A stretch of 61,162 bases of DNA from IMG/VR virus record IMGVR_UViG_3300047550_001096, positions 1-61,162 of that record; one strand, written 5' to 3'. This document shows positions 28,300-58,924 of this stretch, piece by piece; the first letter of the stretch is position 1, and every line of letters starts with the position of its first letter. Under the pieces are notes generated by a model that worked only from the letters and a program-made list of their open reading frames with translations, was not told the origin of the DNA and did no database searches. The stretch comes from a virus. Made by a program: the position numbers and the translations under genes.

Positions 28300-28938
28300 T
28301 TAAACCTCTTCCAGAGATACCGTTATATTCCAAAAGTCAAAGTTGCTACCGCCCCTTTTTACAACAGAATAATTAAAGTCAGCAAAATATACTTGAATAA
28401 TTTGGCTATACTTATTTAAATTTTCGTATGCACTGTTAGTTGTACCAAAGTTAGAGTATTTATCGTATGAAAGATACATCCAAAATGGTCCTTTATGATT
28501 TTCATACCAATCTAATATTTGAACTCCTCCTGCGCCACCGTCTGCAGTATATTCTTCATTGCTTTTATTAAAATATTGAGATTTACCTTCTTCATCAAAT
28601 TCAGCATTTTCAAAATAAGATCTTGATGGTAAATTATTCCATGCCCAAGATATTGTTAATTTATCTGCAATATGATAAGATCTCATTCTTCCATTTATTG
28701 TTCTTTGACGCTGTTCTAACCTCTGTGTTTGAAAATTAATTTCTCCTCTATTGTGGTCAGACAATATTAAAAATTGATTAGTCAATATCGGATCTGTATT
28801 TTCTGGAATTGCAGCGCCTATTTCATACCCATTTGGAACATAAAATCCATCTGTTAGTGTCCCTGAATTTTCAGACCAGAGAACTGCTTGAGGTCTTTGG
28901 TACCTTTTTCTTCCAAGCATGTACGCCGATGTTGTCAT
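28300..28938 (-). CDS. Distal tail-like protein
   Basis: 212 residues directly after the tape measure gene (one-base TAATG overlap). Beta-rich with YHIADKLTISWAWNNLPSRS and PFWMYLSYDKYSNFG, and a C-terminal IIQVYFADFNYSVVKRGG. Position and size fit the distal tail protein that links tube and tip. Sequence resemblance to known Dit proteins is not obvious, so the call rests on gene order. Confidence 0.6.
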   Translation of the reverse strand: MTTSAYMLGRKRYQRPQAVLWSENSGTLTDGFYVPNGYEIGAAIPENTDPILTNQFLILSDHNRGEINFQTQRLEQRQRTINGRMRSYHIADKLTISWAWNNLPSRSYFENAEFDEEGKSQYFNKSNEEYTADGGAGGVQILDWYENHKGPFWMYLSYDKYSNFGTTNSAYENLNKYSQIIQVYFADFNYSVVKRGGSNFDFWNITVSLEEV

Positions 28939-31900
28939 TATGACCTTATGCTCCTAATTCTTTGAGAGTCTGCATATTTAATTTCATCTATTACGGCCCT
29001 AGCAATTGATTGTGCATCAACTGAGGTTCCTGCAACATTTACTCCAACACTATAATTATACACGTTGTTGCTGCTGTTTGTTATAGGTGATGTATTTATA
29101 GCAGTATTTGATATAGTAGTTGGAGAAAGAGTAGAATATTTTGGTTCAACAAATGTAGTATTGGCCATTGGTAACTGTACCATTGTTCTTGGCTTCATAT
29201 CTTTTGCCATGGCGCTTACAGCTCCGCCAATGCCACCCTTACCTTTATCTAAACCTCTTACAACCTGTCCAAAATTATTTTTAAACGATGTTGGCATATT
29301 TCTATTTGTTGCTACTGATCCACCATCGCTGAAATTCTTAGAAAGTATTGATGGGAACTTACTATTATTAATAGCATTTAATAATGGATAAAATTCTTTA
29401 GATGCTGCTTTATTAATTACAAATTCCCCTGGAGTTAGCATTGCTGGGACGGTATCTGATCCAATTGGCTTATATGAAATTAATTTTCCATTATTATAAT
29501 ATGAAGCTTTACCACCATAATTAAAGTTCTTTATCTTTCCACCATACATACTTCCAGGGACAGCGCCAATTCCTGGTCCCTGATTTAAATACTTATATTC
29601 AACTTCTATTACGTGTCTAGTTGTTACAGTTGTATCCCATGATTGTATTTCTTTTGTAATTGCAGATACCGCTGCAAATGCGGCCTCTAATTCTCCAGCT
29701 AATGTTGCTACTATACCTTGAATTGTAGTGATAGTATTTGTAAATACACTACCCTGTGAAACCAGAGAAGTAAAGGCTTTGTCAGTTCTTTCTGTATCTG
29801 TTGCAATATTTTCTAATGGGGTTTCTAGGCCAGCTATTGCATCTTTGAATGCCTGCACTTGTGGGGTAAGGGTATCAAATAGGGCAGAAAGTTCTTGTAT
29901 TGTAGTTAATATTGTTTCTGCATCTTCTCTTATTAAATCCCAATTTTCTACAATTTCTTCTACATCTTCTCTAATCTCTTCAAAATAATCTCTAACAAAT
30001 CTCATTTTTTCTTCAAAAAACTTTATTTCTATGTTTAGTTCTTTAAACATTACAGTAATTGGCTTTTTGTCTCCAGTTAGCGATGCTGGCCGTTTAAACT
30101 CTTCTGGTCTTCCTTGTGGGAATCTTGCTTGTATTGTTTCTAAGAATTGAGCTTTTCTGTCAACGTTTGCATCGCTGCCTCCTGGCATAGCATTATATTC
30201 AGCCATTAATTTATCATATTCTGCAATTAAAGCCTTACGATCTTGTTGCATTTTATCTAGTTGTTTTTCATCTATTGGATCTAGTACTCCAGTATCAATA
30301 GCAACTTTTGCACTCATATTTAATAGCTGTACAGAGTCACTAACTTTCTTTAAAGCATCATCCATTGATAATACAGCAGCTGCTGTTTTCTTCAATGTCT
30401 GCTTATATTTGTCTAGCGCTATCTGTGCCTTTTCCCATTCAAGTTTTCTTTTCTCAATGGCATCAAGCTCTTTCTTCAAAAGATCTTCTTCTGCTTTCAA
30501 CCTGTCTTCTAAATCCTTTAATCTTTTTTCTGCATCAGCAAGTTCTTCTTTTCGTAGTCTATCTATCTCTACTTCATGTTCTCTTATTGCAAGAGTTGCT
30601 TGCTCTCTTAATTCTTGTCTACGATATAGGTCATCTTCAAGTTTAAGAATTTCTGCTTGATTAATCTTTCTTTGTTGCTCAAGATCAAATATCTTTTGGC
30701 TAATCTTAAATTGCTCTTCTTCAATCTGCCTTCTTGTCATACCGCTTGAAGAGCGAAGATTTTCAATTTCAGCTTTACGAGATGCAGCTAAAACATCTCC
30801 AGCTGTTCTTGATGCTGCATCTGCAGCTTGAGCCCTCATATCCTGTGCAAGCTTTGCAGCAGCAGAAATATCTCCCTGTGTTAATGCATCAGCCAATCCA
30901 ATTTGAGACTTCTGCTGATTAATAATATCCTGATTAATTTGTGATATTTTATTAAGAGCTTCTTCTTGTTTGTCATACTTTTCATTAATTGCTTCAGCAG
31001 CTTTATCCATTATTGCAAGATCATTTGAAAGAACAGACGATCTATCTTGTAATGCAGATATTGGTCTGTCAAACTGTTCTTCAATTACTCTTTGTGCATC
31101 ACTTATACGCTCTCTTAAGTCTTCAAGTACATAGTCTCCAAATTGTGGATCATATTTGATCTTAAGATTAATGTCATCAATCTTGTCTTGTTCAGCCTGA
31201 ATTTTTTCATTAATTCTATTGACAGCATCACGGGCACCTTCAATATCTATCTTTAGCTGGAATGTTCTAAGATCAAATGCATTCTGCAATTCTCTTGCTT
31301 GCAAGTCTAATGCAGCAAGGTTTTCATCAATTTGTTCTTGTAATAGATCTGTTTGTGATTTTGTTTTTTGAGCAACTACATCAAGAAGATCTAGGTATCT
31401 TTGTGTTTTACTAATAATATCATCAATGCCTTGACCAGTAACTACTGCATTTACAAAGTTTTGATTTTTTAATACTTCTAAAATGACCTTTTGCTCTACT
31501 TGTTTTTTAGCCAAAATATCATATGCTTCAACCTGTGATTCAAGATTATCAATTTGCTTATCTAAAGATACTAAAGATTCTTCAGACTTTAGTCTTATAG
31601 TCTTTAAAATTTCAGCATTGAGATCTTTTCTTTCCGATACTGAAATACTTAAAAATCCTTGGTCAGCAATCATTCCAGCCATAGTAGCGTCTGAAAGAAT
31701 TCTCTCTATTTCAAGCTGAGAATATTTAGCATCTTTTAATATCTTATAGGCTGTTACTTGATTTTGAATTTCTTTATTTTCTTGCTTAGTCCTATCAATT
31801 AACTCTCCAGCAGTAAGAGTTCTTAGGGCAGCATTAATTTTAAGGAAGTCATCTTTAAGACCAGTAATTCTTCCCTTTTTACCAAGGGTAAATAATTGTT

Positions 31901-34900
31901 TTGACCACAGATTAAACTGCTCTGGATCCATACCCTTTAGTATTCCAATAAAATCTTCATTTAATACAATACCTGCTTTTTTAGCTGCAGCCCTTATTTG
32001 ATCAATAGCCCCAGCTTGTTCTGCAAGCATTGGATTAACATTATCTTTTGTTCCATAAAACTTTCTAATTTCTGAAAGAGCCTTTGTTGCATCTAGACTG
32101 CTTTCTTTAACAAGTTTTAGTCTTTGTGCAATGTCTTCTAGCCAAGAAGTATCTCTCTTTGTTTTTCCTGCTCCACTATCGCTACCGTTTCCATTTTTCT
32201 CTGTTCCAGAAAGTGCAGTTCCAAAAATTTGAGTTAAAGCAGCTTCTTCGGCCTTTTTCTTTATGTCTGGATTTGCTGCTGCAAATGCATCAAGGGTAGA
32301 TTTTGTTACTCTTCTTGCTGTTGGATTTGTTTTTTTATAGGCTGCAGCAATCTCTCTTTGAACAATGGTATCAAACGACTCTGATGTTTTTAATGTAGAT
32401 AGAGTAATCATTGCTTGGAACTGTAATTGTTTAGGAAGCTTAGATAAAATATCCCATTGTTTAATAGCATTATCTAATGTAAGATTTGTTCCCTTACCAA
32501 TATCTTCTTGAACCTTTGTTAAAGCCTCCAGAGTAATTTGGCCATCTGGGAACTTTTTCTTTAAATCTCCAACTTCTTTACCAAGCTTCATTAATTTAGG
32601 AAGAGCATCTGGATTAGTTTCTAGATCAATACTAATTCCAATAAACTCTGGTATTTTAATTATTTCTTCTAATCCAGCTAGAGTTGCGTCTGCCTGTGCT
32701 TTATTTTTACTTGCTATATCAACAACTAGATCTTTTTTATTTTTTTCTCCAGGTATTAGAGTTAATACGGTGCTTAATCTTTGTAGTCCTTCTGTTCCTT
32801 GGGTTTTTACTATAGTATCTATTGTTTTCTTTGGTGGCATACCCGCTTTTGTTAGTGTAGAGAGAAGAACTGATGCTTCGTTTGGAGTTAAAACATCAGA
32901 TGTTACTAAAGTAGATATTTTAATAGTAAGTTTATCGTCTTTCATTTTATCAAGTGTATCTTGCAAAACTGATGCTTCTGCTGCAAGGCCAGCATTATCT
33001 TTAAACTTTTCTTTCATGCCGACTCTAAAGGCTTCCATATATTTATCACGAACAGCACCACGTCCAGATCCAAGTGGACTTATTCTTTCAAATAATGATT
33101 GTCCAGAAATTTTATCAAGATTTCCAGCTGCATCAGACAGCATCTTGGCTTGTGCCTGTCTAATATCTCTTAATCCGCCCTGTCTTTTTTCTTCTAGCCC
33201 TGCAATTTGATCATCTATATCTGATCTTTCTTTTTCAGTTTTTGCAATCTTTTTCTTCAATTCAAGATTATTAATAGCAGAATCAAATTGAGCGTTAAGC
33301 GCATCAATTCCTTGTTGTGATGCTGCTAAGTTTTGTGTAACAATTCCTTGTAGTTGTCCTGCTGCTTTTCCAACAGCAGCTTTTTCTTTACCCTTTTGCC
33401 AAGACCTTAAAGCAGCCTCAACACCACCAAAAATTATAGTTCCTAAAGCAGCACTTATTAAAGCTGGAACGCCTGCAACTCCGCCAGTTCCAACTGCTGC
33501 TGCAGCAGAGCCAGCCTGAATTGCAACTCTTGCTCCTTTAGCAACGTTTAATGCAGTTTTAAGTTTTCCAGCACCTGAAGCTGCTTTTAACTCTGTTGAT
33601 GCTGATAATGCGCTTTTAATACTTTGTGCTGTTTGCATTGCATTATATGATCTCATGCCAGCATATATTCCTAATCCAGCAGCTGGTATTGCAGCACCAC
33701 CAAGTTGTAATGCCTCTGAACGATTAATACCTCTTTGCTGCATGCCAACCATATTAAGATTCTTTATGGCTGCTTCCTGCATTCTTTGACCACTTGCAAT
33801 TAACTCTACCTGAACTTTAAGAGGATCATTAACAAGATTTTCTCCATTTGGACCAAGCAATTGTATTAATCTACCACGCACATCTAATTCTAGTCTTGCA
33901 TCTTTAAGATCTCTTGTAAGTGCAACTGCTATTGATTCTGCCTGTGCTGCATCTAATATTCCCTGAGATACTGCTGTAGCAAGTTGATTTGATAATGATT
34001 CTGCTGCTGTGCCTGCACCAAATGTTGACATTGTTTGATTAAAACTTGCTGCAAGAGATTTTCCAAAATCAGAATTACGAATTATATTTTGACCAAACTC
34101 CATACTAACTGGAGTTATTTCAGTAGTTCTTCCAGCTCTTTGTGCTGCTGCAACTTGTGTAATTGATACTTTTCCAGTTATTGATCCAAGCTCTTCAAGT
34201 CTCTTTGTTGTCATAGTCATAGACTCAGCTTGCTTTTGTCCTTCAACTATATTATTTTTAATAGTAGATGCTTGAGCTTTAAATACCGCAATAAGTCCAA
34301 CTGCGGTTGCAGCTAACATTTTTAATGGACTATTGAGCATAGGCAATAACATTGTTAACATAGAAATCATCATAATGAGATCCATGCTTTTTGCTATTGC
34401 ACTATCTGGGTTCTTTTGAGCATACATTCCAGCAGCCATGGGAGCTGCCATTCCAACCATTTGAAGTGGCATTGCTCTTTGTGTAAAATTCATTCTATTT
34501 AATTGACGCATATTGGTGCGCTCTGCTGGAGTAGCTAGTCTTTGTTGCCCAGTTGCTTCATCTGTTACTGTATTAGCAACTCCACCGTAACCACGAAGGA
34601 ATCCAGTAAATCCTCTTGTCTTATCTTTTCCTAAAGCCTCTGATGCATTATTTGCTGCAATATCTGTACCCTTAAATGAATTAGCAAGTTTTGTGGTAAC
34701 TTTTCTTAATGTACTCATTGAAGCTGCAGCAGCTTTAGTTTCTTTTTCAATACTAGATTTATTTGGTATAAATAATCCAGAGGGGGTTTGCCTATATCCA
34801 GCTGGATCATTTCCTTCAATAAAACCAGGAACTCTATCTGACATTATTGAACTAATTAATGGTGCATATTTAGCACTTTGTCTTGCTGGAATTACCGCTT

Positions 34901-37900
34901 CTCCTGGTGAAAGCATTGCAGGTTGAATATCTCCTGCACCTCTTGGACCAGGTACTGAAAGAATTCCACCTGCTAAACCAAGAATATCTTTGTCAACAAA
35001 TTTAAACTCATCATAATAAGTGTTTGGTTGTCTATTAACTCTATACCTTAGTGCTTCTCTTAATGCCAACTGAGAATCTGAAATATTTGTTAAGCTATCT
35101 AGTTGTCTTATAATTTGCAGTGCCTGTTGTGAATTAACTGGATGTGCTCCACTTACTCCATTAATAGATGTTCCTCTTAATCCTAAATTTAACCAGCTCC
35201 AGTCTCTTGCTATTTTTTCTTCTGTCCAAGAAGCCTTTCCTCTTTTTTTGCCAACTGGAGTAAGATGACTTGGGGTATCTTTTTTATCCCAGTTTAGCCT
35301 AGAAGATATTCCAGGGCGCAACCTTTCTAAGTTATTTTGAAGTATTGCTTTTTCTTCATTTTCATAATAACTCATAAGACGTATTGCATTAGGATTATTT
35401 CTACTTAAAATCTCTTTCCATCTTTTTTCTGCAACACTTTGTTTTCCAACTCTATTTTTAAGAGTGTCCCATTTTTGAAGTCTTCCATATATATCGCTAA
35501 GTCTGGTTATTTTTCTACCTTGAAGTTCTGGACTTCTAACTTTTAATAAATAGTATAACTTTCCTTCAGTTGTATTTTCCCAAGATTCACCTTTGCGTGT
35601 ACTAGTTCTTCCATGCTTTGCTGTTCTTGTTGGATCACCCATTGTTAAAAATCGTTCATTTTTTTGCAAAGCAATTTTTAAATCTTTTTTAGATGCTTTT
35701 GGAATTGAAAAAGAAACGTCTTTTAATTGAATTATTAAATCATCACCTTGTTCTCTATATAGTATATTTGATAAACCTTTTGCTTCTGTCCCAAATAATG
35801 ATTTAAATCCAGCAGCAGACCTTCCAGGCACTGATACTGGCAATAAAGGCGTCTTTCTTGATCCACCAGTTGCCTGCACCGTACTACGTGCAGCACCAAA
35901 CATTAAATCATCAAAATTAGTTGCAAATGATGTTCTTGCAAATGGATTTATACCAGTTGCAAATCCTGGCACCTTATCCTGAATAATTTGACTAATAAAT
36001 CCTGAATACTTTTGTGACTGTTTTGCTGGAATAACTGCTTCTCCAGGAGAAAGCATTGATGGCACAACATCTCCAGCTCCTCTTGGACCAGGAACTGATG
36101 TAGTTCCATCTGCAAACCTCTTTGGAGCTTTCCCTCTTCCAGGAAGGAATAGTCCTGGGTTATTAGCAGCGAATCCTCCCATTGCAACATTTGCTTGAGA
36201 ATATGTTCCGATCAAAGAACTAAGAGCTGCCTGCTCAAGTCTATATGCAGCAGAAAGTTGTTCATGCTTTGAATATAAAGCATTAGTAATAGATACGTTT
36301 TCTAATTCTTCCTGTGTTAGATATTGTGTTTTTAATGCAACGTCAGACGATCCATAAGCTAGCTGCTGGTATCCCTTACGAAGCATATTAACGCCCTTTA
36401 AGGAGTTAGCTACAGCGTTTGCTATTAAACCAAAAGTCATTAAGAAAATTGGACCAATACCGCCAACAACACCAATTATAATAGCAATAGCTTTTTTAAT
36501 ACCATCTGGCAAATTATTAAACTTCTCCGCTATTTTTCCAATATATTCTAGTACTGGAGTTAATATTTCAGCAAAAAGTTTTCCAATCGGAGCTATGGCA
36601 ACTTTTAATTTTTCAATTGATGCAGCAAGCTTATTCATTGGAGAATCTGCTTGAATTTTTAACTCTCGCTTACTCAAAATTGCAAGTTCTTCAGCAGATG
36701 CATTTGTTAGCTGCAAAACACGTGCAGCCTGCGTTCCTTCTTTTCCAATATTATTTAATAATGCAGAAATTCTAGCAAACTGATATTTTCCAAATATCTT
36801 TTCAATTATTTGTGTTCTTTGCAAATCTGTTAATGGTTGTAGTGATTTTGCAAAAGCTGTTACTATGTTTCTTAAATTACCCTGATTTTCTTGAATTATA
36901 CCCTTTAAGTTTATACCAAGATCTGATGCTGCAGCAGCTGCTGCTTTACTTGGATTAATTAATGATGCAAGTCCAGACTTTAGTGCGTTTGCACCTTGTG
37001 CAGCACTAATACCACCTTCTTGCATTGCAGCCATAAAATAAGCAAGATCTTTAACATCTCCACCAAGTTGTTGAATAACTGGTGCTACTCTTGGTACTGC
37101 TTCAGTTAAATCTTCTAGCGCTACAACTGTTTGGTTTTCTACTGCGTTTAAGAAATCAATAGTGCCAGATAGTTGACTCTCGTCAATCTGAAATGCATTT
37201 CGTAAAGCAATTGTTGTTTCAAGAGCTTTTTCTTGTGTTACTCCACCAAGTACTGCTAATTTGTTTGTTTGCTCTACAAGATTTTCAAGACCTTTGCCAC
37301 TAAAACCAGCAGCTGCTGCATCTGCAGCGGTCTTAATAGTATCTGCTACCTTTAATCCATATTTTGTATATTCATCACCAAGTTCACGAATATTTTTTAA
37401 TGCTTGATCAGTTGCCCCCTGATCTGTAAAAATATCTCCATAAACCTTTTTGAATCTAATTACTTGTGTTTCAATTTCTTTGAATGTTCTAATTGCCTGT
37501 GTTCCAAATATTGCTAATGGTATAGTAAAACCAACCATAAGCTGACGACCAGCCCATTGTGTATTTTTACCAAAATTTAAAAGTTTTGTTGCTCCATCAT
37601 CCATCAACTTATTAAATATTTGTTGACGTTGAGTTGCTAGCATTAATTGAGTTGTTACATCTCTATAATTTAATGCTTTTGGAGTAAATTTAAGTGCATT
37701 CATTGCACCCTGAGCATCACGGCCTAGCTGTACATATTGTTGCTGTAGAGTCTTTACTCTTTTATCTACTAACTTACTTACTGTGTCAAATTCATTACCA
37801 AATACCCTGCCAAAAGTACGAGTAGATGCAACACCATATCTAAAATATTCCTTAAGAGATAATTTTGATTTATCTAGAGCAGTAGCAAATTGTTCTGTTG

Positions 37901-38120
37901 CCGTCTTCATTCTAGTCATGGACGCTGTCCACTGACCAGTTGCGTTTACATTATGAAGTAGTGATTGTGCATACTTAGACTGAGCCTGAGTAGCAGTTTT
38001 TGTTCCAACAATAAGAGCACGGTTAAGGGCAGTAATTTCTTTTTCCAAGGCACGAAGTTGTGCCATAGCCTGAGACGTATCAATATTTATAAAAATATTG
38101 CTATTTGTATCTCCTGCCAT
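28938..38120 (-). CDS. Tape measure protein (3060 aa)
   Basis: 3060 residues, the largest gene. The N-terminal part (about 1-240) is coiled coil leading to the phage minor-tail domain (GRQLMVGFTIPLAIFGTQAI). Hydrophobic segments lie near 553, 1225-1290 and 1480-1560. Residues about 2270-2640 are a long coiled coil. A motif of the form GD-(V/I/T)-xPxMLxPGE-(A/F)-VI occurs three times (about 690, 1075 and 2893), each after a Gly/Pro stretch. By the usual rule of about 1.5 angstrom per residue the tail would be near 460 nm. The C-terminal part ends with beta strands that join the tip. Confidence 0.95.
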   Translation of the reverse strand: MAGDTNSNIFINIDTSQAMAQLRALEKEITALNRALIVGTKTATQAQSKYAQSLLHNVNATGQWTASMTRMKTATEQFATALDKSKLSLKEYFRYGVASTRTFGRVFGNEFDTVSKLVDKRVKTLQQQYVQLGRDAQGAMNALKFTPKALNYRDVTTQLMLATQRQQIFNKLMDDGATKLLNFGKNTQWAGRQLMVGFTIPLAIFGTQAIRTFKEIETQVIRFKKVYGDIFTDQGATDQALKNIRELGDEYTKYGLKVADTIKTAADAAAAGFSGKGLENLVEQTNKLAVLGGVTQEKALETTIALRNAFQIDESQLSGTIDFLNAVENQTVVALEDLTEAVPRVAPVIQQLGGDVKDLAYFMAAMQEGGISAAQGANALKSGLASLINPSKAAAAAASDLGINLKGIIQENQGNLRNIVTAFAKSLQPLTDLQRTQIIEKIFGKYQFARISALLNNIGKEGTQAARVLQLTNASAEELAILSKRELKIQADSPMNKLAASIEKLKVAIAPIGKLFAEILTPVLEYIGKIAEKFNNLPDGIKKAIAIIIGVVGGIGPIFLMTFGLIANAVANSLKGVNMLRKGYQQLAYGSSDVALKTQYLTQEELENVSITNALYSKHEQLSAAYRLEQAALSSLIGTYSQANVAMGGFAANNPGLFLPGRGKAPKRFADGTTSVPGPRGAGDVVPSMLSPGEAVIPAKQSQKYSGFISQIIQDKVPGFATGINPFARTSFATNFDDLMFGAARSTVQATGGSRKTPLLPVSVPGRSAAGFKSLFGTEAKGLSNILYREQGDDLIIQLKDVSFSIPKASKKDLKIALQKNERFLTMGDPTRTAKHGRTSTRKGESWENTTEGKLYYLLKVRSPELQGRKITRLSDIYGRLQKWDTLKNRVGKQSVAEKRWKEILSRNNPNAIRLMSYYENEEKAILQNNLERLRPGISSRLNWDKKDTPSHLTPVGKKRGKASWTEEKIARDWSWLNLGLRGTSINGVSGAHPVNSQQALQIIRQLDSLTNISDSQLALREALRYRVNRQPNTYYDEFKFVDKDILGLAGGILSVPGPRGAGDIQPAMLSPGEAVIPARQSAKYAPLISSIMSDRVPGFIEGNDPAGYRQTPSGLFIPNKSSIEKETKAAAASMSTLRKVTTKLANSFKGTDIAANNASEALGKDKTRGFTGFLRGYGGVANTVTDEATGQQRLATPAERTNMRQLNRMNFTQRAMPLQMVGMAAPMAAGMYAQKNPDSAIAKSMDLIMMISMLTMLLPMLNSPLKMLAATAVGLIAVFKAQASTIKNNIVEGQKQAESMTMTTKRLEELGSITGKVSITQVAAAQRAGRTTEITPVSMEFGQNIIRNSDFGKSLAASFNQTMSTFGAGTAAESLSNQLATAVSQGILDAAQAESIAVALTRDLKDARLELDVRGRLIQLLGPNGENLVNDPLKVQVELIASGQRMQEAAIKNLNMVGMQQRGINRSEALQLGGAAIPAAGLGIYAGMRSYNAMQTAQSIKSALSASTELKAASGAGKLKTALNVAKGARVAIQAGSAAAAVGTGGVAGVPALISAALGTIIFGGVEAALRSWQKGKEKAAVGKAAGQLQGIVTQNLAASQQGIDALNAQFDSAINNLELKKKIAKTEKERSDIDDQIAGLEEKRQGGLRDIRQAQAKMLSDAAGNLDKISGQSLFERISPLGSGRGAVRDKYMEAFRVGMKEKFKDNAGLAAEASVLQDTLDKMKDDKLTIKISTLVTSDVLTPNEASVLLSTLTKAGMPPKKTIDTIVKTQGTEGLQRLSTVLTLIPGEKNKKDLVVDIASKNKAQADATLAGLEEIIKIPEFIGISIDLETNPDALPKLMKLGKEVGDLKKKFPDGQITLEALTKVQEDIGKGTNLTLDNAIKQWDILSKLPKQLQFQAMITLSTLKTSESFDTIVQREIAAAYKKTNPTARRVTKSTLDAFAAANPDIKKKAEEAALTQIFGTALSGTEKNGNGSDSGAGKTKRDTSWLEDIAQRLKLVKESSLDATKALSEIRKFYGTKDNVNPMLAEQAGAIDQIRAAAKKAGIVLNEDFIGILKGMDPEQFNLWSKQLFTLGKKGRITGLKDDFLKINAALRTLTAGELIDRTKQENKEIQNQVTAYKILKDAKYSQLEIERILSDATMAGMIADQGFLSISVSERKDLNAEILKTIRLKSEESLVSLDKQIDNLESQVEAYDILAKKQVEQKVILEVLKNQNFVNAVVTGQGIDDIISKTQRYLDLLDVVAQKTKSQTDLLQEQIDENLAALDLQARELQNAFDLRTFQLKIDIEGARDAVNRINEKIQAEQDKIDDINLKIKYDPQFGDYVLEDLRERISDAQRVIEEQFDRPISALQDRSSVLSNDLAIMDKAAEAINEKYDKQEEALNKISQINQDIINQQKSQIGLADALTQGDISAAAKLAQDMRAQAADAASRTAGDVLAASRKAEIENLRSSSGMTRRQIEEEQFKISQKIFDLEQQRKINQAEILKLEDDLYRRQELREQATLAIREHEVEIDRLRKEELADAEKRLKDLEDRLKAEEDLLKKELDAIEKRKLEWEKAQIALDKYKQTLKKTAAAVLSMDDALKKVSDSVQLLNMSAKVAIDTGVLDPIDEKQLDKMQQDRKALIAEYDKLMAEYNAMPGGSDANVDRKAQFLETIQARFPQGRPEEFKRPASLTGDKKPITVMFKELNIEIKFFEEKMRFVRDYFEEIREDVEEIVENWDLIREDAETILTTIQELSALFDTLTPQVQAFKDAIAGLETPLENIATDTERTDKAFTSLVSQGSVFTNTITTIQGIVATLAGELEAAFAAVSAITKEIQSWDTTVTTRHVIEVEYKYLNQGPGIGAVPGSMYGGKIKNFNYGGKASYYNNGKLISYKPIGSDTVPAMLTPGEFVINKAASKEFYPLLNAINNSKFPSILSKNFSDGGSVATNRNMPTSFKNNFGQVVRGLDKGKGGIGGAVSAMAKDMKPRTMVQLPMANTTFVEPKYSTLSPTTISNTAINTSPITNSSNNVYNYSVGVNVAGTSVDAQSIARAVIDEIKYADSQRIRSIRS

Positions 38121-38145: not shown

Positions 38146-38472
38146 TTAGTCTTGTGACGCTAGAGCAAGAAGAGCTGATTCTGAAAGGTTAATTCCAGAT
38201 GCAGCCTCAATGATTGAATAAACTGTAGGAAGATCAATAAGTTCTTCTAGTTTTTCAACACTGTCCCCAAGCTCTGGCTTATACTGTTGCATTGCAATCT
38301 GAACACATTCAATCAAAAGCGTCATAGACTTGTCATTATCATCTTGGACTGCTGTTAGTCCTTCAAACTTCTTCATAAACTGACGAAGAAGAGAGATTTT
38401 TAGTGGTCTAACTTTGATTTTTGTGCCATCAATTAGAGAAATTTCTTTCTCTTCATGCACGGATGTAGCCAT
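38146..38472 (-). CDS. Tail assembly chaperone, short form
   Basis: 108 residues. It contains EISLIDGTKIKVRPLKISLL, RQFMKKFEGL, and DLPTVYSIIEAASGI, clearly homologous to the N-terminal domain of the long paralogue just upstream (38516-39244). Together they occupy the place of the G and G-T proteins that coat the tape measure during tail assembly. Here the short form has its own start (SD GGAGG) and its own TGCTATAAT promoter. No slippery sequence toward a downstream frame was seen. Confidence 0.8.
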   Translation of the reverse strand: MATSVHEEKEISLIDGTKIKVRPLKISLLRQFMKKFEGLTAVQDDNDKSMTLLIECVQIAMQQYKPELGDSVEKLEELIDLPTVYSIIEAASGINLSESALLALASQD

Positions 38473-38498
38473 TACTCCTCCTTAATTAAGTTATGTCA

Positions 38499-38507
38499 AT
38501 TATAGCA
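38499..38507 (-). promoter_or_regulatory. Extended -10 promoter for the short tail chaperone
   Basis: TGCTATAAT on the minus strand in the gap between the two paralogous chaperone genes. It would also add transcripts over the tape measure gene. Confidence 0.55.
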
Positions 38508-38515
38508 TAAAGGCT

Positions 38516-39244
38516 TTATTTTTTCATAAGGCTAGGATCTCTTAAATCTGTGTAATCTAAGCCCATTCCTATACCAAATCCAGATTTTCTTGCATTTTGT
38601 CCTTGAAGCGCCAGCACGTCATTGCTGTCTGTTGCCTTGCCTTTACTAAATACCCTGGCCTTCATATCTTCCCATTCTTTTTGACCTTTTACCTTACCGC
38701 CAGAGTTTGCCTTATCTGCATCTATATCAATACCCTGAATGGCTGCTAAAAATTTCTTTTCTTGATAATCTAGTTCTCTTAATGATGATAATGTTGCCAA
38801 TAATTCTGGCATAGAAAGATTTTCCTCTAGCTCTTTATAATCTTTCCATATGCCTATTAAAAATACTTCTGATTCTAATTTTGCTAAATCTAGGCTATCC
38901 CAATTACTTCCACCTTCTTTTGAGTTTGCCTGTTCTTTAATTGACTCTTCAGAATCTTTTTCTATTTTAATACTTCCTGCTATATTTACTATTTTATATA
39001 CCGTTGGCAAATCAACTTGATCTTCAAATTCTGCTAATGTTTTTATTTTAGGATAATATTGTTGCATAGCAAGAAATCCACACTTTGATAGCAATGTAAG
39101 AGATTCCTCATCATCTTTAGCATTTTTTATTTTATTAAATACCGTCATAAAATAACGCAAGTATTTAATTTTCAATGGATAGATTTCTATTCTTGTTCCA
39201 TTTAATAAATAAATAACATCTGTTTTATATACTGCCGTTGCCAT
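38516..39244 (-). CDS. Tail assembly chaperone, long form
   Basis: 242 residues. Residues 1-105 parallel the short chaperone (VIYLLNGTRIEIYPLKIKYL and VDLPTVYKIV). The remaining 135 residues are extra, acidic-helical (NWDSLDLAKLESEVFLIGIW, SSLRELDYQEKKFLAAIQG) and end in a G/K-rich tail. This is the layout of a G-T fusion encoded as a separate gene. It follows the major tail gene after a terminator. The ATG lies seven bases after a TGATAGAAT box (39252-39260) without a ribosome site, so it looks leaderless. Confidence 0.8.
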   Translation of the reverse strand: MATAVYKTDVIYLLNGTRIEIYPLKIKYLRYFMTVFNKIKNAKDDEESLTLLSKCGFLAMQQYYPKIKTLAEFEDQVDLPTVYKIVNIAGSIKIEKDSEESIKEQANSKEGGSNWDSLDLAKLESEVFLIGIWKDYKELEENLSMPELLATLSSLRELDYQEKKFLAAIQGIDIDADKANSGGKVKGQKEWEDMKARVFSKGKATDSNDVLALQGQNARKSGFGIGMGLDYTDLRDPSLMKK

Positions 39245-39251
39245 TTTATCT

Positions 39252-39260
39252 ATTCTATCA
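39252..39260 (-). promoter_or_regulatory. Probable leaderless promoter of the long tail chaperone
   Basis: TGATAGAAT on the minus strand, seven bases before the ATG at 39242-39244, and directly after the T-rich tail of the terminator at 39271-39289. Confidence 0.5.
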
Positions 39261-39311: not shown

Positions 39312-39965
39312 TTATGCTGATGCTGGGGTCCAAGTACGATCTATGATCTTACCATATGATCCAGAAACGTCTTCAGGTAGAAGACGGAAAGAAACTTCAA
39401 ACATTGAAGCCTCATCACGCTTTGCAGATACTGTTACGTTCTCAATTGAGAGCGCACGGTATGCAGCGTAAACACGCTCTACATATGCAGAGTCTGCACA
39501 GTCTCCTGTGCCAGGTCCAACTGCAACAATACCACGCTCAACTGGGCACTCACCAATATCTCCTGCGGAGAGATTTAGTGCTTGTCCTGCTGAAGTAGCT
39601 TTATCTACTTCTGGGTCTAGTTGATCGTCGTTGTAAGCAAGAGCCAAGAGAAGATTCTCAAGAGTAGCTTCAGCAAAAGCGGTTGCAAGATTTACCTGCA
39701 TTCCTTGCTTATACAATTTAGCAACGTCAAGAATTTGGTCAACCTGTACTTCACCGAAGTCTGGCTGGAACTGCAATTCAAGACCGTTCATTGTATAACC
39801 AACATTTTTAAAATCTTCATCAACTGGTGATGTTGAAAGTGTGTCTTTGTAAGACTCATCAGTTTCAAAGCCAGGTAGTGAAGCCTCATCTAGTGTGCCG
39901 TTAGCTACGAAAAGAGCTGCTGCACCAACGATGATGTTTGTTGACGTACCACGAGTGTATGCCAT
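39312..39965 (-). CDS. Major tail tube protein
   Basis: 217 residues. It starts MAYTRGTSTNIIVGAAALFV and continues with a beta-rich domain including GYTMNGLELQFQPDFGEVQV and a C-terminal FEVSFRLLPEDV, as in lambda-type tube proteins. It lies just before the tail chaperones and tape measure, as expected. A TGATATACT promoter (40028-40036), a GAGGTGA ribosome site and a downstream terminator show it is a high-copy product. Confidence 0.85.
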   Translation of the reverse strand: MAYTRGTSTNIIVGAAALFVANGTLDEASLPGFETDESYKDTLSTSPVDEDFKNVGYTMNGLELQFQPDFGEVQVDQILDVAKLYKQGMQVNLATAFAEATLENLLLALAYNDDQLDPEVDKATSAGQALNLSAGDIGECPVERGIVAVGPGTGDCADSAYVERVYAAYRALSIENVTVSAKRDEASMFEVSFRLLPEDVSGSYGKIIDRTWTPASA

Positions 39966-45077: not shown

Positions 45078-45818
45078 AGGATTTTCCTCCTTTGTCATCT
45101 TAATTGTTCTAATGCCTTTTGCACTATCAACTAAGAACTTTACTGTTTCTGTGTCATTAATATCTTCTACGAATCCAATATTTTTCATCGTACCACTGCA
45201 AGATGGGCAACTTTCTTCTGACTCTTTAGAAAGTCTAACTATGTCGTCAGTATTGCACCAGTAAACAGTATCAATAACAGCTTTAGCAAGATATCCGCTA
45301 ATCTGTCCTTTCTCAATTGAAATGACATTTGCGAATTGATTTGCTGGATTATCAACTAATGATAACTCGTGTAAATCATATTCTTTAATTATGCGAATTG
45401 ATTTATCAATTTTTTCATCATATGTATCATCAGACTTTGTAATATTTCCACCAATTGAAAAACCAGTTAGTGTACCGTCAAGAACTTTTTCCCAAGTATC
45501 TTGAGCCCCCTTTGATACATAAGCTGAAACATAAACACCACTATAGAATTTTTTTGCCTTTGGATCAAAATAACGGTCTTCTTTAAAAGATACAACTTTG
45601 CCAACAGCATTTGGTTGATGCATTTCACGAAGATTTCCACGAAACCTCTTAAATGCATCTATACTTGCTTCAGTTGTGACAATATCGTTTTGCTTGTCTA
45701 CATTGTCTAATGTAGCAAATCCAGATACGATACGACGCTCTTTGTCTACTTTTCCAATAGGCATAGAGAAGCGAACATTGTCGCCATCGGTTGTCCATTG
45801 CGCTTTATTTATGGTCAT
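44523..45818 (-). CDS. Prohead protease fused to scaffold domain
   Basis: 431 residues. Residues about 15-175 are the XkdF/HK97-type serine protease: His67 in LREMHQPNAVG and Ser121 in LTGFSIGGN. Residues about 186-215 insert a short Cys cluster (WCNTDDI with CPSCSGTM). Residues 248-340 are Pro/Glu/Ala/Val-rich and disordered, and 340-400 form the coiled coil of a scaffold (TEIKESLTNALSNLAETVKS). The end (LWGGRFLTNADLFN) resembles a capsid-docking tail. An in-frame internal start at 45077 likely makes the scaffold part alone. The TATAAT box at 45828-45833 lies nine bases before the ATG. Confidence 0.85.
   Translation of the reverse strand: MTINKAQWTTDGDNVRFSMPIGKVDKERRIVSGFATLDNVDKQNDIVTTEASIDAFKRFRGNLREMHQPNAVGKVVSFKEDRYFDPKAKKFYSGVYVSAYVSKGAQDTWEKVLDGTLTGFSIGGNITKSDDTYDEKIDKSIRIIKEYDLHELSLVDNPANQFANVISIEKGQISGYLAKAVIDTVYWCNTDDIVRLSKESEESCPSCSGTMKNIGFVEDINDTETVKFLVDSAKGIRTIKMTKEENPMTEETTEVVDAPVADTPEVVDNVEVAPEAPVEAPAEVPAEEAPASEPAEETPAETPAVEDVAEKSVDAVVDTAADIAKSVTEIKESLTNALSNLAETVKSLQTNVDAITKSLETVTGEVKSVASEVSQVKGTFNEFGKRVDLVEKDTAFRKSGDLGEIVQEPVVKQVQKSLWGGRFLTNADLFN
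45086..45093 (-). promoter_or_regulatory. Internal ribosome binding site for the nested scaffold
   Basis: AAAGGAGG on the minus strand within the protease coding frame, eight bases before an in-frame ATG. The full-length protease start has no ribosome site. Confidence 0.65.
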
Positions 45819-51534: not shown

Positions 51535-53565
51535 TTAAGACATTTTAATTTCACAAGAGTCGGTGGTGCAATATGCCTCTCCCATAGCCTCTAAATTATT
51601 AGCCCCATCATAAATTGCAGCCCAATTAATCTTTTTAATTTGCCCAATATATGACTCATATTCCTCTTTTGTAATTTGAGTATATGGTTGTTGAGGATAG
51701 GTATGATTTCCCATTGGTAAGAATGACACTGCTTTTAACTGCCCTTCGTACATATGGAGAGCAGATGCAATATGCTTTGATTCAGACTCTTTATCAAATG
51801 AAAGAGTAACAGAAACACCATTGTCTGACCAATATTTTTGAGCAGTAGCAGCAAGTGCTATTTTTTCAAATAATGTTACATCTTTTTCAGAACGAGCATG
51901 GCCAGAATGTACTGGGAAATATACAACTTGTGTATTTGCTGATACTAAATCTTTTTCAACTTTATACCCCGCTGCTTTGAACAAATGAATCATTGGATCT
52001 GTTTCTCCAAAGCGGATTGCACGAAGGAAATATTCTCCTCCTGGTGCCCAGTGAACTCCTGGAGTTGCTCCAGAAAGAATTGAAACAGAGCCAGAAGGTT
52101 TTACAGTTGTGACACGAATTGATTCACGAACACACAACCATTCTGAATATTTGTGATCATAGGCACGAATTGTTTTATATCCTTCATCCATCCATTCACG
52201 AACTGCAGGCAAACCTTTTTGATCTGCAAATGATGCAATTCCAGTTAGTGATGTTCCAATACGACGATTACGCTGCATAATTCCATTTGTTTGTTGCCAA
52301 TGTGTTGGAATAAGAGTAACTGTCTTTCCATATAAATATGCAAATTTTAAAGTACGCAAAAAATCTTCTTTAGAATCGTGACGATTTAAATGAACCTCTA
52401 CAAGTGTACATAGTTCGTATGATTCTAATGGTTGTTCTGCACAAGGATTAAATCCCATAACACGATAATCTTTTCCATCTGCTGGATCTGCAAGACGACC
52501 ATAGTTGCGAGCAACATCAAGCCAAATAAAACCAGGTTCTCCGTTATTTGCAATTAAATCAACATAGTCTTCATATTTTGTTCCTACATTTGCTGATATT
52601 GAATTATTACTCATCCATGCCCAACCTGGTTTTTCTGGATCATACGAATTTCTATCTGGAAAAACCTCTGGGTTTTTAAGATTAATAAAATCATCATCTC
52701 CAGCTGCTCCAAGTGCAAGAGTTGCAGAACGTCGTACATTACCAGCAACAACGCATGTTCCAATTAAATTTACAATATCAACAATTGCACGAGAATCTAG
52801 TTTTTCTCCTGCTCTCCCGCCAATAACTGTACGAATACGATTATGTAAATCAATCAATGGTTGTGGGCCAGATGCGACTCCTCCAAATCCTTTAATAGGA
52901 GCGCCTAATGGACGAATTAGGGAATAATCAAATTCTTGAATTGCTTGATTAGGACGAAGGAATGAATTAATTAGCATTCTTACAGACTCAACCCATCCCT
53001 CACGAGTATCAGGAATTTCATAAGTTACTGAGGGTTCTGTAGGGGAATAAATAGGAAATTCTTTTTCTGCTCCCACAGTATCAAATCCAACACCAATACC
53101 AAGCATCAGTGCATCCATCACCCAAGCAAATAAGGCACCTGGATCATTTTTGTCTAAATCTTTAGTTGAGACCATAGCACAATTTTGAAGTGCTGCTGAG
53201 TTGCGCTTCTCCATAGTCATAGGAGTTCCAAACGCCCACATACCACGTCCTGGAGGAGTCCACTTTAAATTAAACATACGGTCAAAAGCTTCTTGGGCAG
53301 ATTTTTGGGCCTTATTATCATTCCAAGGCAGGCGATTTTCTTTAGCATGATTTTTCTGCACTGAGTACATTCCCTCAATTACACGACGGCAAACTTCATA
53401 CCATCGCTCCTTTGTGCCATCATCTTTCATTCTTGAATATGTGCGAATAAATGTTATTTCTCCAAGGGAGTTGTTGCCTGCATCTGAAAACCCAAATGGT
53501 GGCTCAGTGCTTTTATATTTATTCACAAACTCATCTAGTAAACGGAATGAAAAGATATCTGACAT
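51535..53565 (-). CDS. nrdJ: Class II adenosylcobalamin-dependent ribonucleotide reductase
   Basis: 676 residues of the monomeric RTPR type. The radical and thiyl site is at FNPCAEQPLE (about 370-379), where Asn, Cys and Glu line the active site. A second active-site Cys lies at LQNCAMVSTKDL (about 128), and a C-terminal CTTDSC (Cys666 and Cys671, a CxxxxC pair) is the reductant shuttle, as in the Lactobacillus enzyme. It converts ribonucleoside triphosphates to deoxy forms using B12 from the host. The ribosome site is weak. Expression is probably controlled by inverted repeats at 53604-53620 and 53641-53653 flanking its promoter. Confidence 0.93.
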   Translation of the reverse strand: MSDIFSFRLLDEFVNKYKSTEPPFGFSDAGNNSLGEITFIRTYSRMKDDGTKERWYEVCRRVIEGMYSVQKNHAKENRLPWNDNKAQKSAQEAFDRMFNLKWTPPGRGMWAFGTPMTMEKRNSAALQNCAMVSTKDLDKNDPGALFAWVMDALMLGIGVGFDTVGAEKEFPIYSPTEPSVTYEIPDTREGWVESVRMLINSFLRPNQAIQEFDYSLIRPLGAPIKGFGGVASGPQPLIDLHNRIRTVIGGRAGEKLDSRAIVDIVNLIGTCVVAGNVRRSATLALGAAGDDDFINLKNPEVFPDRNSYDPEKPGWAWMSNNSISANVGTKYEDYVDLIANNGEPGFIWLDVARNYGRLADPADGKDYRVMGFNPCAEQPLESYELCTLVEVHLNRHDSKEDFLRTLKFAYLYGKTVTLIPTHWQQTNGIMQRNRRIGTSLTGIASFADQKGLPAVREWMDEGYKTIRAYDHKYSEWLCVRESIRVTTVKPSGSVSILSGATPGVHWAPGGEYFLRAIRFGETDPMIHLFKAAGYKVEKDLVSANTQVVYFPVHSGHARSEKDVTLFEKIALAATAQKYWSDNGVSVTLSFDKESESKHIASALHMYEGQLKAVSFLPMGNHTYPQQPYTQITKEEYESYIGQIKKINWAAIYDGANNLEAMGEAYCTTDSCEIKMS

Positions 53566-55326: not shown

Positions 55327-55989
55327 ATGTTATTATTTGATATAGGGGCTAATAGAGGAGATGCTGTACTTGTAGGGTTAAATAAAGGATATAAAGTAGT
55401 TGCATTAGAGCCTGCTCCACATATATATAAAGAACTAGTAAAAAATTTTATTTATAATCCAAACGTAGTACCATTAAAGTTTGCAGTATCAGATAGTAAT
55501 AATCAAACAATAGAATTTTATGAAGCTGATGAAGATGGTTTATCTACTATAAATAAAGAATGGCTTACTTCAGATACCATGCCATATAAGGGTAAAAATT
55601 TTAGAACTATTCAAGCTACAACAATAACAGTTGATTCTTTAGTAGATATTTATGGAATACCAGACTTAATTAAAATTGATGTTGAAGGTGCAGAATGGTC
55701 TGTATTTCGTGGAATAACTAAAAAATATAAAACATTAACTTTTGAATGGACCAATGTTACTATTGGAGAACATCAATCTCAAATAGAATATTTAAAAAAT
55801 CTTGGATATACAGAAATAGGTCCTCAGTTTATTGAACACCATTTACAAGAACCAAAAGAATGGTTCAATATTAATGATCAAAGATTAGATGACTGGATAA
55901 TTGCTAATAAAGATAAATGGGAAGAAAAAGATTGGAAAGAGTCTGGACTTAGACCAACTGCAGATGTTGGAATGTGTTGGATTAAATAA
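55327..55989 (+). CDS. FkbM-family SAM-dependent methyltransferase
   Basis: 220 residues. The SAM-binding motif [20 protein letters not shown] stands at the N-terminus, followed by [52 protein letters not shown] and [12 protein letters not shown], the hallmark of FkbM O-methyltransferases. It would methylate a sugar or glycan end, a common way of masking surface polymers. It starts almost at the SAM motif, so it is short for the family. Its last eight bases overlap the convergent collagen-like gene. Confidence 0.85.
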
Positions 55990-56563
55990 TATCTCCCGTA
56001 ACATACCAAACTTCATTTTCTGCTTTAATTAAAGTTAACATACTATATTGAACACGAGTTTTTGGAGCATTAGATGTTGCTGCAGCTGATGCAATTGTAG
56101 TTGTTGCTGGTGTTACAGCATTAATTGTTATCTGTCCTGCTCCAATTTGAACAACATTTATAGCATCGCCTATAGCAAAAGCAACATTTGAATTTGTTGG
56201 AACGCTAAATGTTTGAGCTGATCCGCTATTTCCACGAACTAAGTTATCTTTGTCTGTTAAAACAAAAGTATATGTTGCTCCAGTTTGAGTAGTTACAGCA
56301 TCTACACCTGTTGGTCCTGGTATTCCCTGTATACCCTGAGTTCCTTGTGTTCCTGTGGTTCCTTGAGAACCTGTAGTGCCTTGTGAACCTGTAGTTCCTT
56401 GTGTGCCTGTTATTCCTTGTATTCCTTGAGCACCTGTAGCCCCTGTAACACCTTGAATTGTAGTAGGAACTATAGCCCAAACTGTTCCAGTCCATTGTCT
56501 TGTAATTCCATCAACTGTAAACTGTTGATTTACAGATGGATTATCTGGAAAATTTGCTGGCAT
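55982..56563 (-). CDS. Short collagen-like tail fibre protein
   Basis: 193 residues. The N-terminal part (about 1-32, ending in an [13 protein letters not shown] segment) attaches to the virion. Residues about 36-87 form Gly-x-y repeats (G-T/S-x such as GTTGSQ units and [10 protein letters not shown]). Residues about 90-193 form a beta-rich tip ([31 protein letters not shown]). It has an AGGAGG ribosome site. It ends convergent with the FkbM gene. A receptor-binding fibre or tip is likely. Confidence 0.75.
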
Positions 56564-57553: not shown

Positions 57554-58924
57554 TTAAACCTTTGATACTGATAGTGAAATAGTTGCTTTTGTAACAGATG
57601 TTACGCTATCAACGTTAAATGCAAGAATATCTCCAGAAGATATTGATGTAGTCCAACCAGTTAAGGTTGAACTTTGACCCTTAGTAGCAGTAGTTGTTAA
57701 TGGTTTTGCAGAACCAGTAATTGTATCTGCTACAGTTGGAGGGTAGTTAGCATAAGTATCTTTCCAAATATCAATAGTAATAGAACCAGATACATCATTT
57801 AATACTGTCCACTTTGTAATAGTACATCCAAATGGTATTTCTAAATATCCTTTAAGACCTGTTGTAATTACAGATCCGCCACCATCAATAATAAATGTAA
57901 TAGTTCCATCTGCTACACCTCTTGTACCTTGAATACCAGTTGTGCCTTGTAATCCTTGTAATCCCGTAGTTCCTTGAGTTCCAGTTGAACCCTGTGTACC
58001 AGTTGTGCCTTGTGAACCAGTTGTACCTTGTGGTCCTTGTGTTCCTTGAATACCAGCAACGCTAAATGTCCAGGCTGCAAAAGTACCAGATCCACCGAAA
58101 ACATCAGCGTTAATCGTAATGCTTGTATCTGCAGTAATTGATGTAATAGAACCTTCAACATAGTTAGATGGTGTTGCTGTATTTGCTGCACGAACACGCT
58201 CTCCTAACTGAAATGCACCAGTATTTGAAACTGTAAATGTTTTAGAGCCTGTTCCAATAGCAACAGATGTTGATGATGTAACTCCTAAAAATGAACGACC
58301 TTGGATTCCTTGAGTACCCTGAGTTCCAGTAGAACCCTGAGTTCCTGTAGTTCCTTGAATACCTTGATCCCCAGTTCTAGAAAAAACTACTGATAATGAT
58401 CCAGTATTAGTAGGAAGTGATCCAGAAACATATGAAACTGGTATCTTATAATATCCAGTAGCTCCACCAGTTGGAGTTACTGCTCCAGTAACTGTAAAAA
58501 CATTGAATGTAGTAGAGCCAACACTAGTTCCTAGCAAATATATTGTTCCACGAGTTGCAGTAGTTGTTGAATCATCCCAAGTATCATACCAACCAGTTTG
58601 TGTATTTCCTAAAGAATCAAGATTATCTATATATATAAAACTAACAGAAGACATTGTTCCACTGTTATATCTAATTATTCCATTTCCAGGATCTGAATCA
58701 GTAGTTGTAGTACTAAATGCATATGGGACACCACCGCTACCGCTTGGTCCAACTGTCCCTTGAATACCAGATGCATAGGCTAAAGAATTCCAGCTAGTAG
58801 ACCCATTTCCTACTTTAAATTTACCAGTATCTGTTTCATATCCTGGTTCTCCAGCAGCCAATAATGTATTAGCAGCTGTCCATTGTGCTGCTGTACCTCG
58901 TCTATACTGAATTTGAATTGGCAT
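57554..58924 (-). CDS. Collagen-like tail fibre protein with Mtd-type N-terminus
   Basis: 456 residues. The start, MPIQIQYRRGTAAQWTAANT, then AAGEPGYETDTGKFKVGNGS, is the phage fibre attachment domain found with tropism determinants. Two collagen-like Gly-x-y blocks (about 180-205 and 285-330) flank beta domains (about 60-180 and 210-280). The tip, FIIDGGGSVITTGLKGYLEI, follows. A module in it is paralogous to one in the next fibre gene. The ribosome site is GAGGAG. Confidence 0.8.
   Translation of the reverse strand: MPIQIQYRRGTAAQWTAANTLLAAGEPGYETDTGKFKVGNGSTSWNSLAYASGIQGTVGPSGSGGVPYAFSTTTTDSDPGNGIIRYNSGTMSSVSFIYIDNLDSLGNTQTGWYDTWDDSTTTATRGTIYLLGTSVGSTTFNVFTVTGAVTPTGGATGYYKIPVSYVSGSLPTNTGSLSVVFSRTGDQGIQGTTGTQGSTGTQGTQGIQGRSFLGVTSSTSVAIGTGSKTFTVSNTGAFQLGERVRAANTATPSNYVEGSITSITADTSITINADVFGGSGTFAAWTFSVAGIQGTQGPQGTTGSQGTTGTQGSTGTQGTTGLQGLQGTTGIQGTRGVADGTITFIIDGGGSVITTGLKGYLEIPFGCTITKWTVLNDVSGSITIDIWKDTYANYPPTVADTITGSAKPLTTTATKGQSSTLTGWTTSISSGDILAFNVDSVTSVTKATISLSVSKV

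What the first reader, a model, noticed from the sequence alone, without database searches (positions are those of the whole stretch)
38146..39244. Tail assembly chaperones as two paralogous genes and not a frameshift pair
Most long-tailed phages make G and G-T proteins by programmed frameshifting. Here the short (108 aa) and long (242 aa) forms are separate genes whose N-terminal domains are clearly related, each with its own promoter-like -10 box. The long one appears leaderless. This may be a solution to producing the two forms at set ratios without a slippery site.
Basis: partly seen in the sequence, partly recalled or inferred. Interest (0 to 1): 0.7.

Follow-up and report, generated by a model that had tools for sequence, protein, structure and literature searches.

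The report
Tail chaperone pair without ribosomal frameshifting
In a large group of environmental tailed phages, the short and long forms of the tail-building chaperone, which related phages make from one gene by a ribosomal slip, come from two neighbouring duplicate genes with their own start signals, so a recoding trick seems to have been replaced by gene duplication.

Summary
Between the major tail and tape-measure genes lie a long gene (G fused in frame to T, 242 aa) and a short G paralogue (108 aa; 41% identity over 100 aa). It is not peculiar to this genome: 261 of 327 fetched loci (overlapping; 169 distinct long genes) have it, 57 have one G gene with T in the -1 frame, none has both. 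All 44 distinct frameshift loci carry a slippery-type heptamer at the same place; the fused genes have fewer than chance there. Long and short copies form two clades: one old duplication, in a lineage whose sisters still frameshift. The start signals are conserved too: a terminator after the major tail gene (135/142), an extended -10 box 5-9 nt before the long ATG (140/142) with no Shine-Dalgarno, and TGNTATAAT (142/142) plus a strong Shine-Dalgarno (141/142) before the short gene. So the two forms are most likely made by separate initiation. The ratio, the transcript starts and the binding roles are inferred, not measured. T4-like phages already offer a two-gene, no-frameshift precedent, so this is a new variant of a known kind; the reconstructable switch from recoding to duplication is the interesting part.

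The parts
39312..39965 (-). major tail protein gene (upstream neighbour)
   Evidence: PHROG 2175 E=1.8e-31; the matching gene is annotated 'major tail protein' in Streptomyces phage relatives
39269..39291 (-). intrinsic-type terminator hairpin between the major tail gene and the long chaperone gene
   Evidence: the same kind of hairpin plus T tract in 135/142 distinct relatives, 1/142 after dinucleotide shuffling
39252..39260 (-). extended -10 box TGATAGAAT, 7 nt before the long gene's ATG (predicted leaderless start)
   Evidence: TGNTANNNT 5-9 nt before ATG in 140/142 distinct loci; shuffles 1.2%
38516..39244 (-). long chaperone gene: G domain (about residues 1-97) fused in frame to T domain (about 113-242); 242 aa
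   Evidence: no conserved slip heptamer
38499..38507 (-). extended -10 box TGCTATAAT of the short gene
   Evidence: TGNTATAAT in 142/142 distinct loci, about 25 nt before ATG; shuffles 0.6%
38477..38483 (-). Shine-Dalgarno AAGGAGG of the short gene
   Evidence: anti-SD pairing energy mean -9.8 kcal/mol for short genes, -1.85 for long genes; SD motif 141/142 against 0/142
38146..38472 (-). short chaperone gene, G domain only; 108 aa
   Evidence: dN/dS 0.074
28938..38120 (-). tape measure protein gene, 3060 aa, downstream neighbour with a Shine-Dalgarno but no extended -10 box of its own
   Evidence: TIGR01760 E=7e-34; start region

Best explanation
The locus encodes the two tail assembly chaperones of a long-tailed phage, the G form and the G-T form, as separate genes. 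An ancestor had one promoter, one G gene and a -1 slip into T, as its relatives still do. The gene with its promoter and leader was duplicated. One copy became the long gene: G was joined in frame to T and the leader was lost, so that the -10 box now sits directly before the ATG. The other copy lost T and kept the promoter and Shine-Dalgarno leader: the short gene. The long gene is transcribed from a leaderless promoter behind the terminator of the major tail gene; the short gene and the tape measure gene are transcribed from the stronger-looking TGNTATAAT promoter and also from any transcript that runs on from the long gene. Thus short G should exceed G-T, and the ratio is set by two promoters and two kinds of translation start in place of a slip frequency. 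Shown by sequence: homology, gene order, single G and T in relatives, absence of a conserved slip site, conserved signals, selection on both genes. Inferred: that the duplication was a single event, the actual transcript starts, the ratio, and the binding roles (G to tape measure, T to tail tube).
For: Gene order and paralogy. 261 of 327 fetched loci 'G=T then G', 57 'G / T in -1 frame', 4 cut by a contig end, none with both forms. Frameshifters have exactly one G and one T match in 15 phage or viral records searched whole, 4 of them complete Streptomyces phage genomes. All 44 distinct frameshift loci carry CCCGGAA (17), CCCAAAT (14), CCCAAAC (10) or GGGAAAC (3) at one conserved place; long genes show no such site (22/169, codon shuffles 44, range 30-52). 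G tree: 46 long copies one clade and 46 short copies one clade, both 100/95, frameshifters L296, L299, L306, L312 next to the short clade; the tape-measure tree puts all duplicated loci on one side (support 64). Signals. Selection: short 0.074, long G 0.112, long T 0.057. Leaders of frameshifters L312 and L325 (TGNTATAAT, then SD) resemble the short gene's leader. Fold of the long model: HK97 tail assembly chaperone 2ob9 ranks first, weakly (Z 4.7); the short model matches viral 'tail assembly chaperone' A0A6J5QVP5, E=4.7e-7.
Against: No expression data. Leaderless starts need not be weak: in mycobacteria a leaderless reporter was translated as well as, or better than, an SD reporter (PMC8485053), so a low G-T share cannot be read off the leader alone. 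The T-domain and major-tail trees need 3 changes of state, though a single clade is not rejected (p-AU 0.21 and 0.39), so more than one origin or recombination is possible. The match to a solved chaperone is weak.
Confidence: 0.82

Rival explanations
1. Frameshifting persists: the long gene still slips, ending early to give a G form (dnaX-like), and the short gene is a helper or redundant copy.
For: 22 of 169 distinct long genes have some XXXYYYZ heptamer in the junction.
Against: That is half of what codon shuffling gives (44, range 30-52), with no shared position or sequence, whereas all 44 distinct frameshift relatives have one at a fixed place. The short gene is kept in every locus where the contig reaches it.
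Confidence: 0.05
2. The two genes have diverged in role: the long protein carries T but its G domain no longer joins the G oligomer; the short protein acts alone on the tape measure protein.
For: The long G domain varies more than the short one (mean pairwise identity 54% against 70%; dN/dS 0.112 against 0.074) and sits on a long branch.
Against: Both keep the same core pattern of the G domain and neither occurs without the other in uncut loci.
Confidence: 0.2
3. The promoter-like boxes are only sequence bias of an AT-rich genome; all genes are read from one upstream promoter and the ratio is set by ribosome-binding strength alone.
For: A simple promoter scan of the region finds 46 sites, mean 36.5 in shuffles, so single matches mean little.
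Against: Position and letters of both boxes are kept in 140-142 of 142 distinct loci against about 1% in shuffles; a terminator stands between the major tail gene and the long gene; TGNTATAAT occurs 10 times on the minus strand and once on the plus strand of the window, mostly just upstream of genes.
Confidence: 0.07

Closest known systems
Tail assembly chaperones of Stanwilliamsviridae (Streptomyces phages Coruscant, MulchMansion, Wakanda, Faust)
   Same: Homologous G and T domains, same place between major tail and tape measure genes, terminator and extended -10 promoter upstream
   Different: One G gene with a Shine-Dalgarno leader; T in the -1 frame after a conserved slip heptamer; no second G gene anywhere in the four complete genomes
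Tail assembly chaperones of T4-like phages (Vladimirov, Gautam and Davidson 2022, Virology 566:9-15)
   Same: One short gene and one longer fusion gene, no frameshift, as summarised in PMC10885494
   Different: Read only at second hand. No significant similarity to T4 gp26 or gp51 found. If those are the pair (inferred: they are related to each other, E=2e-6), in T4 they lie on opposite strands, not in tandem with a conserved promoter set
Phage lambda G / G-T
   Same: Short G and long G-T forms needed together; ratio about 30:1 (PMC5009743)
   Different: Made by a -1 slip within one gene
Microbacterium phages of several cluster EA subclusters
   Same: [quoted passage not shown] PMC11659878)
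   Different: Not compared here; whether they are a short gene plus a fused long paralogue is not stated

Membership tests
Long-tailed phage tail assembly chaperones (G/G-T kind) | Genes lie between the major tail protein and the tape measure protein | tested here: met
Long-tailed phage tail assembly chaperones (G/G-T kind) | A short form and a longer form sharing the N-terminal domain | tested here: met
Long-tailed phage tail assembly chaperones (G/G-T kind) | Fold like that of a solved chaperone (HK97, 2ob9) | tested here: inconclusive
   2ob9 ranks first among re-aligned chains but at Z 4.7, rmsd 5.1, 88 residues
Long-tailed phage tail assembly chaperones (G/G-T kind) | G binds tape measure protein, T binds tail tube protein | not testable with these tools
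   needs binding assays
Frameshift-expressed G/G-T chaperones | Conserved slip heptamer with T in another frame | tested here: not met
   T is in frame with G in all loci of this group; no conserved heptamer
Two-gene chaperones as in T4-like phages | Separate short gene and in-frame long fusion gene | tested here: met
   definition from PMC10885494
Two-gene chaperones as in T4-like phages | Sequence homology to the T4-like proteins | tested here: inconclusive
   no significant profile match to T4 gp26 or gp51 with single T4 sequences; weak PHROG 150 match only (E=0.03)
Leaderless genes | -10 box a few bases before the start codon and no Shine-Dalgarno | tested here: met
   TANNNT centred 7-12 bp before transcript starts in M. 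tuberculosis (PMC3898074)
Leaderless genes | Transcript starts at the start codon | not testable with these tools
   needs transcript start mapping

The most novel reading that the evidence does not exclude
A programmed frameshift was replaced, once and long ago in a large lineage of environmental phages, by duplication plus a fixed pair of unlike start signals (leaderless for the long form, Shine-Dalgarno for the short), so that the crucial chaperone ratio is set by promoter strength and by the host's balance of leaderless and leadered translation.
Probability: 0.45. Interest if true: 0.68.

Novelty: new variant of a known kind. Interest (0 to 1): 0.56.

Why it matters
Frameshifted tail chaperones are a textbook case of recoding kept across most long-tailed phages. 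Here is a clade that gave it up while its nearest relatives kept it, with the before and after states readable in sequence: the slip site, the duplicated leader, the in-frame fusion. It suggests that what is conserved is the need for two forms in a ratio, not the slip itself, and it gives a natural test of whether that ratio can be set by transcription and translation start. It also warns annotators: a missing slip site need not mean that a chaperone was missed.

Tried and rejected
Pfam, NCBIfam and PDB sequence searches name neither protein. Foldseek against the PDB gave nothing below E=0.8. Profile comparison with T4 gp26 and gp51 gave nothing. The two loci with three G hits (L060, L173, the same contig) are a short gene broken by a frame change, probably a sequence error, not a third copy. 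The four loci with a long gene alone end at the contig edge. A host could not be named: no tRNA; the only hit in cellular genomes was a frameshift-type relative in a contig binned as a cyanobacterium, probably a phage contig. Trees of the T domain and the major tail protein alone do not settle one versus several origins. Papers on a leaderless or paralogous tail chaperone in actinophages were not found; only open-access text was searchable, and the T4 paper itself could not be read.

Full report
What is there. On the minus strand, between a major tail protein gene (39965-39312) and a 3060-aa tape measure gene (38120-28938), lie a 242-aa ORF (39244-38516) and a 108-aa ORF (38472-38146). The first 100 residues are 41% identical, E=1e-24. 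PHROG 10504 matches the short protein and the N-terminus of the long one; PHROG 10474 matches only the C-terminal half of the long one. The record is a 61,162-base virus contig with two copies of the G domain in all.

Relatives. tblastn against annotated phages found about 130 records, nearly all Streptomyces phages, one place each; four that were inspected belong to Stanwilliamsviridae. There G and T are separate ORFs, T in the -1 frame. In IMG/VR, close relatives of the window have the window's arrangement. Adding searches with the T domain gave 327 loci in all (some overlap): 259 'G=T G', 2 more with a broken short gene, 57 'G / T(-1)', 4 'G=T' cut by a contig end, and a few uninformative ones. 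No locus has both arrangements and no uncut locus has an in-frame G-T without a separate G. Sixteen frameshift-type records searched whole hold one G and one T match each (one is a bacterial bin, the other 15 phage or viral records).

Slip sites. In all 44 distinct frameshift loci a heptamer of the slippery kind sits at the same place, at Leu-Asn-Asp-Pro or its equivalent: CCCGGAA 17, CCCAAAT 14, CCCAAAC 10, GGGAAAC 3. CCCGGAA is not a strict XXXYYYZ; it is counted because of its fixed position. In 169 distinct long genes, 22 have any strict heptamer in the 105-nt junction, 44 expected from codon shuffles (30-52 in 20 runs). The slip was lost, not moved.

History. In a tree of G domains the 46 long copies form one clade and the 46 short copies another (both 100/95), with frameshifters L296, L299, L306 and L312 next to the short clade. 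That is the pattern of one duplication followed by long coexistence. The tape measure tree puts all duplicated loci on one side (support 64). The T-domain and major tail trees need three changes, but one clade is not rejected (p-AU 0.21 and 0.39). The short proteins end much as the unshifted G of the frameshifters does (LSESALLALASQD beside LNDPNLLAAAAEALGKN), while the long protein's linker lines up with the shifted product. Both genes are under purifying selection: median dN/dS 0.074 short, 0.112 long G, 0.057 long T.

Start signals. Of 142 distinct duplicated loci, 135 have a terminator hairpin with a T tract between the major tail gene and the long gene (1 after shuffling); 140 have TGNTANNNT ending 5-9 nt before the long ATG (1.2% in shuffles); 142 have TGNTATAAT upstream of the short ATG, mostly 23-28 nt away (0.6% in shuffles). 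A Shine-Dalgarno motif is present before 141 short genes and 0 long genes; mean pairing energy is -9.8 against -1.85 kcal/mol, the latter weaker than shuffled sequence. The frameshifters have one such promoter, with a leader and Shine-Dalgarno, before G; those of L312 and L325 look like the short gene's. So the short gene seems to have kept the old leader and the long gene to have lost it. In M. tuberculosis a TANNNT box centred 7-12 bp upstream marks most transcript starts, and the extended form goes with stronger transcription (PMC3898074), which fits a leaderless reading here; the host, however, is not known to be an actinobacterium, although the named relatives infect Streptomyces. Several other genes of this phage look leaderless as well, so the device is not reserved for the chaperone.

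How it works. In lambda G and G-T are needed at about 30:1, G binding the tape measure protein and T the tail tube protein (PMC5009743). Here the two forms would be made by separate starts. The short gene has the consensus -10 box, a strong ribosome-binding site, and run-on transcription from the long gene, with no terminator between them, so short should exceed long. That is inference. A leaderless start is weak in E. coli but not in mycobacteria (PMC8485053), so promoter strength may matter more than the leader.

Membership and novelty. By place, domain make-up and paralogy these are tail assembly chaperones; the fold match to HK97 chaperone 2ob9 is first in rank but weak (Z 4.7), and the short model matches a viral protein named tail assembly chaperone (models). 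The slip, a usual feature, was tested and is absent. T4-like phages are reported to have a short gene and a long fusion gene without frameshifting (Vladimirov et al. 2022, through PMC10885494), and some Microbacterium phages to express two ORFs separately (PMC7302621). The principle is thus known; what is new here, as far as could be searched, is this clade, the frameshifting sisters that let the switch be followed, and the conserved unlike pair of start signals. No annotated phage record matched by either protein holds two places.

Limits. No expression data; the host is unknown; locus counts include several fetched from the same contigs, which is why distinct sequences are used for the statistics; searches returned the best 80 loci each, so the share of duplicated to frameshift loci is not a population estimate; the loci are related by descent, so the conservation counts are not independent events, although G domains of the long genes fall to 33% identity between representatives.

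Noticed in passing
window starts at 45818, 47875, 53773, 2384, 1291, 3204: Several other genes look leaderless too (-10 box 5-9 nt before the start, weak or no Shine-Dalgarno), e.g. 45818-44523 with TGATATAAT; leaderless starts seem a general device of this phage.
   Followed up: partly
window, minus strand: 53672, 51533, 45836, 43071, 38507, 16614, 9511, 2998, 2403, 2108; plus strand: 20743: TGNTATAAT occurs 10 times on the minus strand and once on the plus strand, mostly just upstream of genes: likely a promoter class of this phage.
   Followed up: partly
window 55982-56563 and 57554-58924: Structural-type proteins with collagen-like repeats, the second with an Mtd N-terminal domain (major tropism determinant); a diversity-generating retroelement was not looked for.
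   Followed up: no
window 51535-53565: A B12-dependent ribonucleotide reductase-like gene.
   Followed up: no
L060 and L173 (one contig), short gene: The short gene is broken into two frames, probably a sequence error; the only such contig seen.
   Followed up: partly
L246 4678-5294: A contig binned as a cyanobacterial genome carries a frameshift-type relative with CCCAAAC; likely a phage contig, its host doubtful.
   Followed up: partly
window 28938-38120: Tape measure protein of 3060 aa with a repeated motif like SVPGPRGAGDVxPSMLSPGEAVIPA; a very long tail is expected.
   Followed up: no
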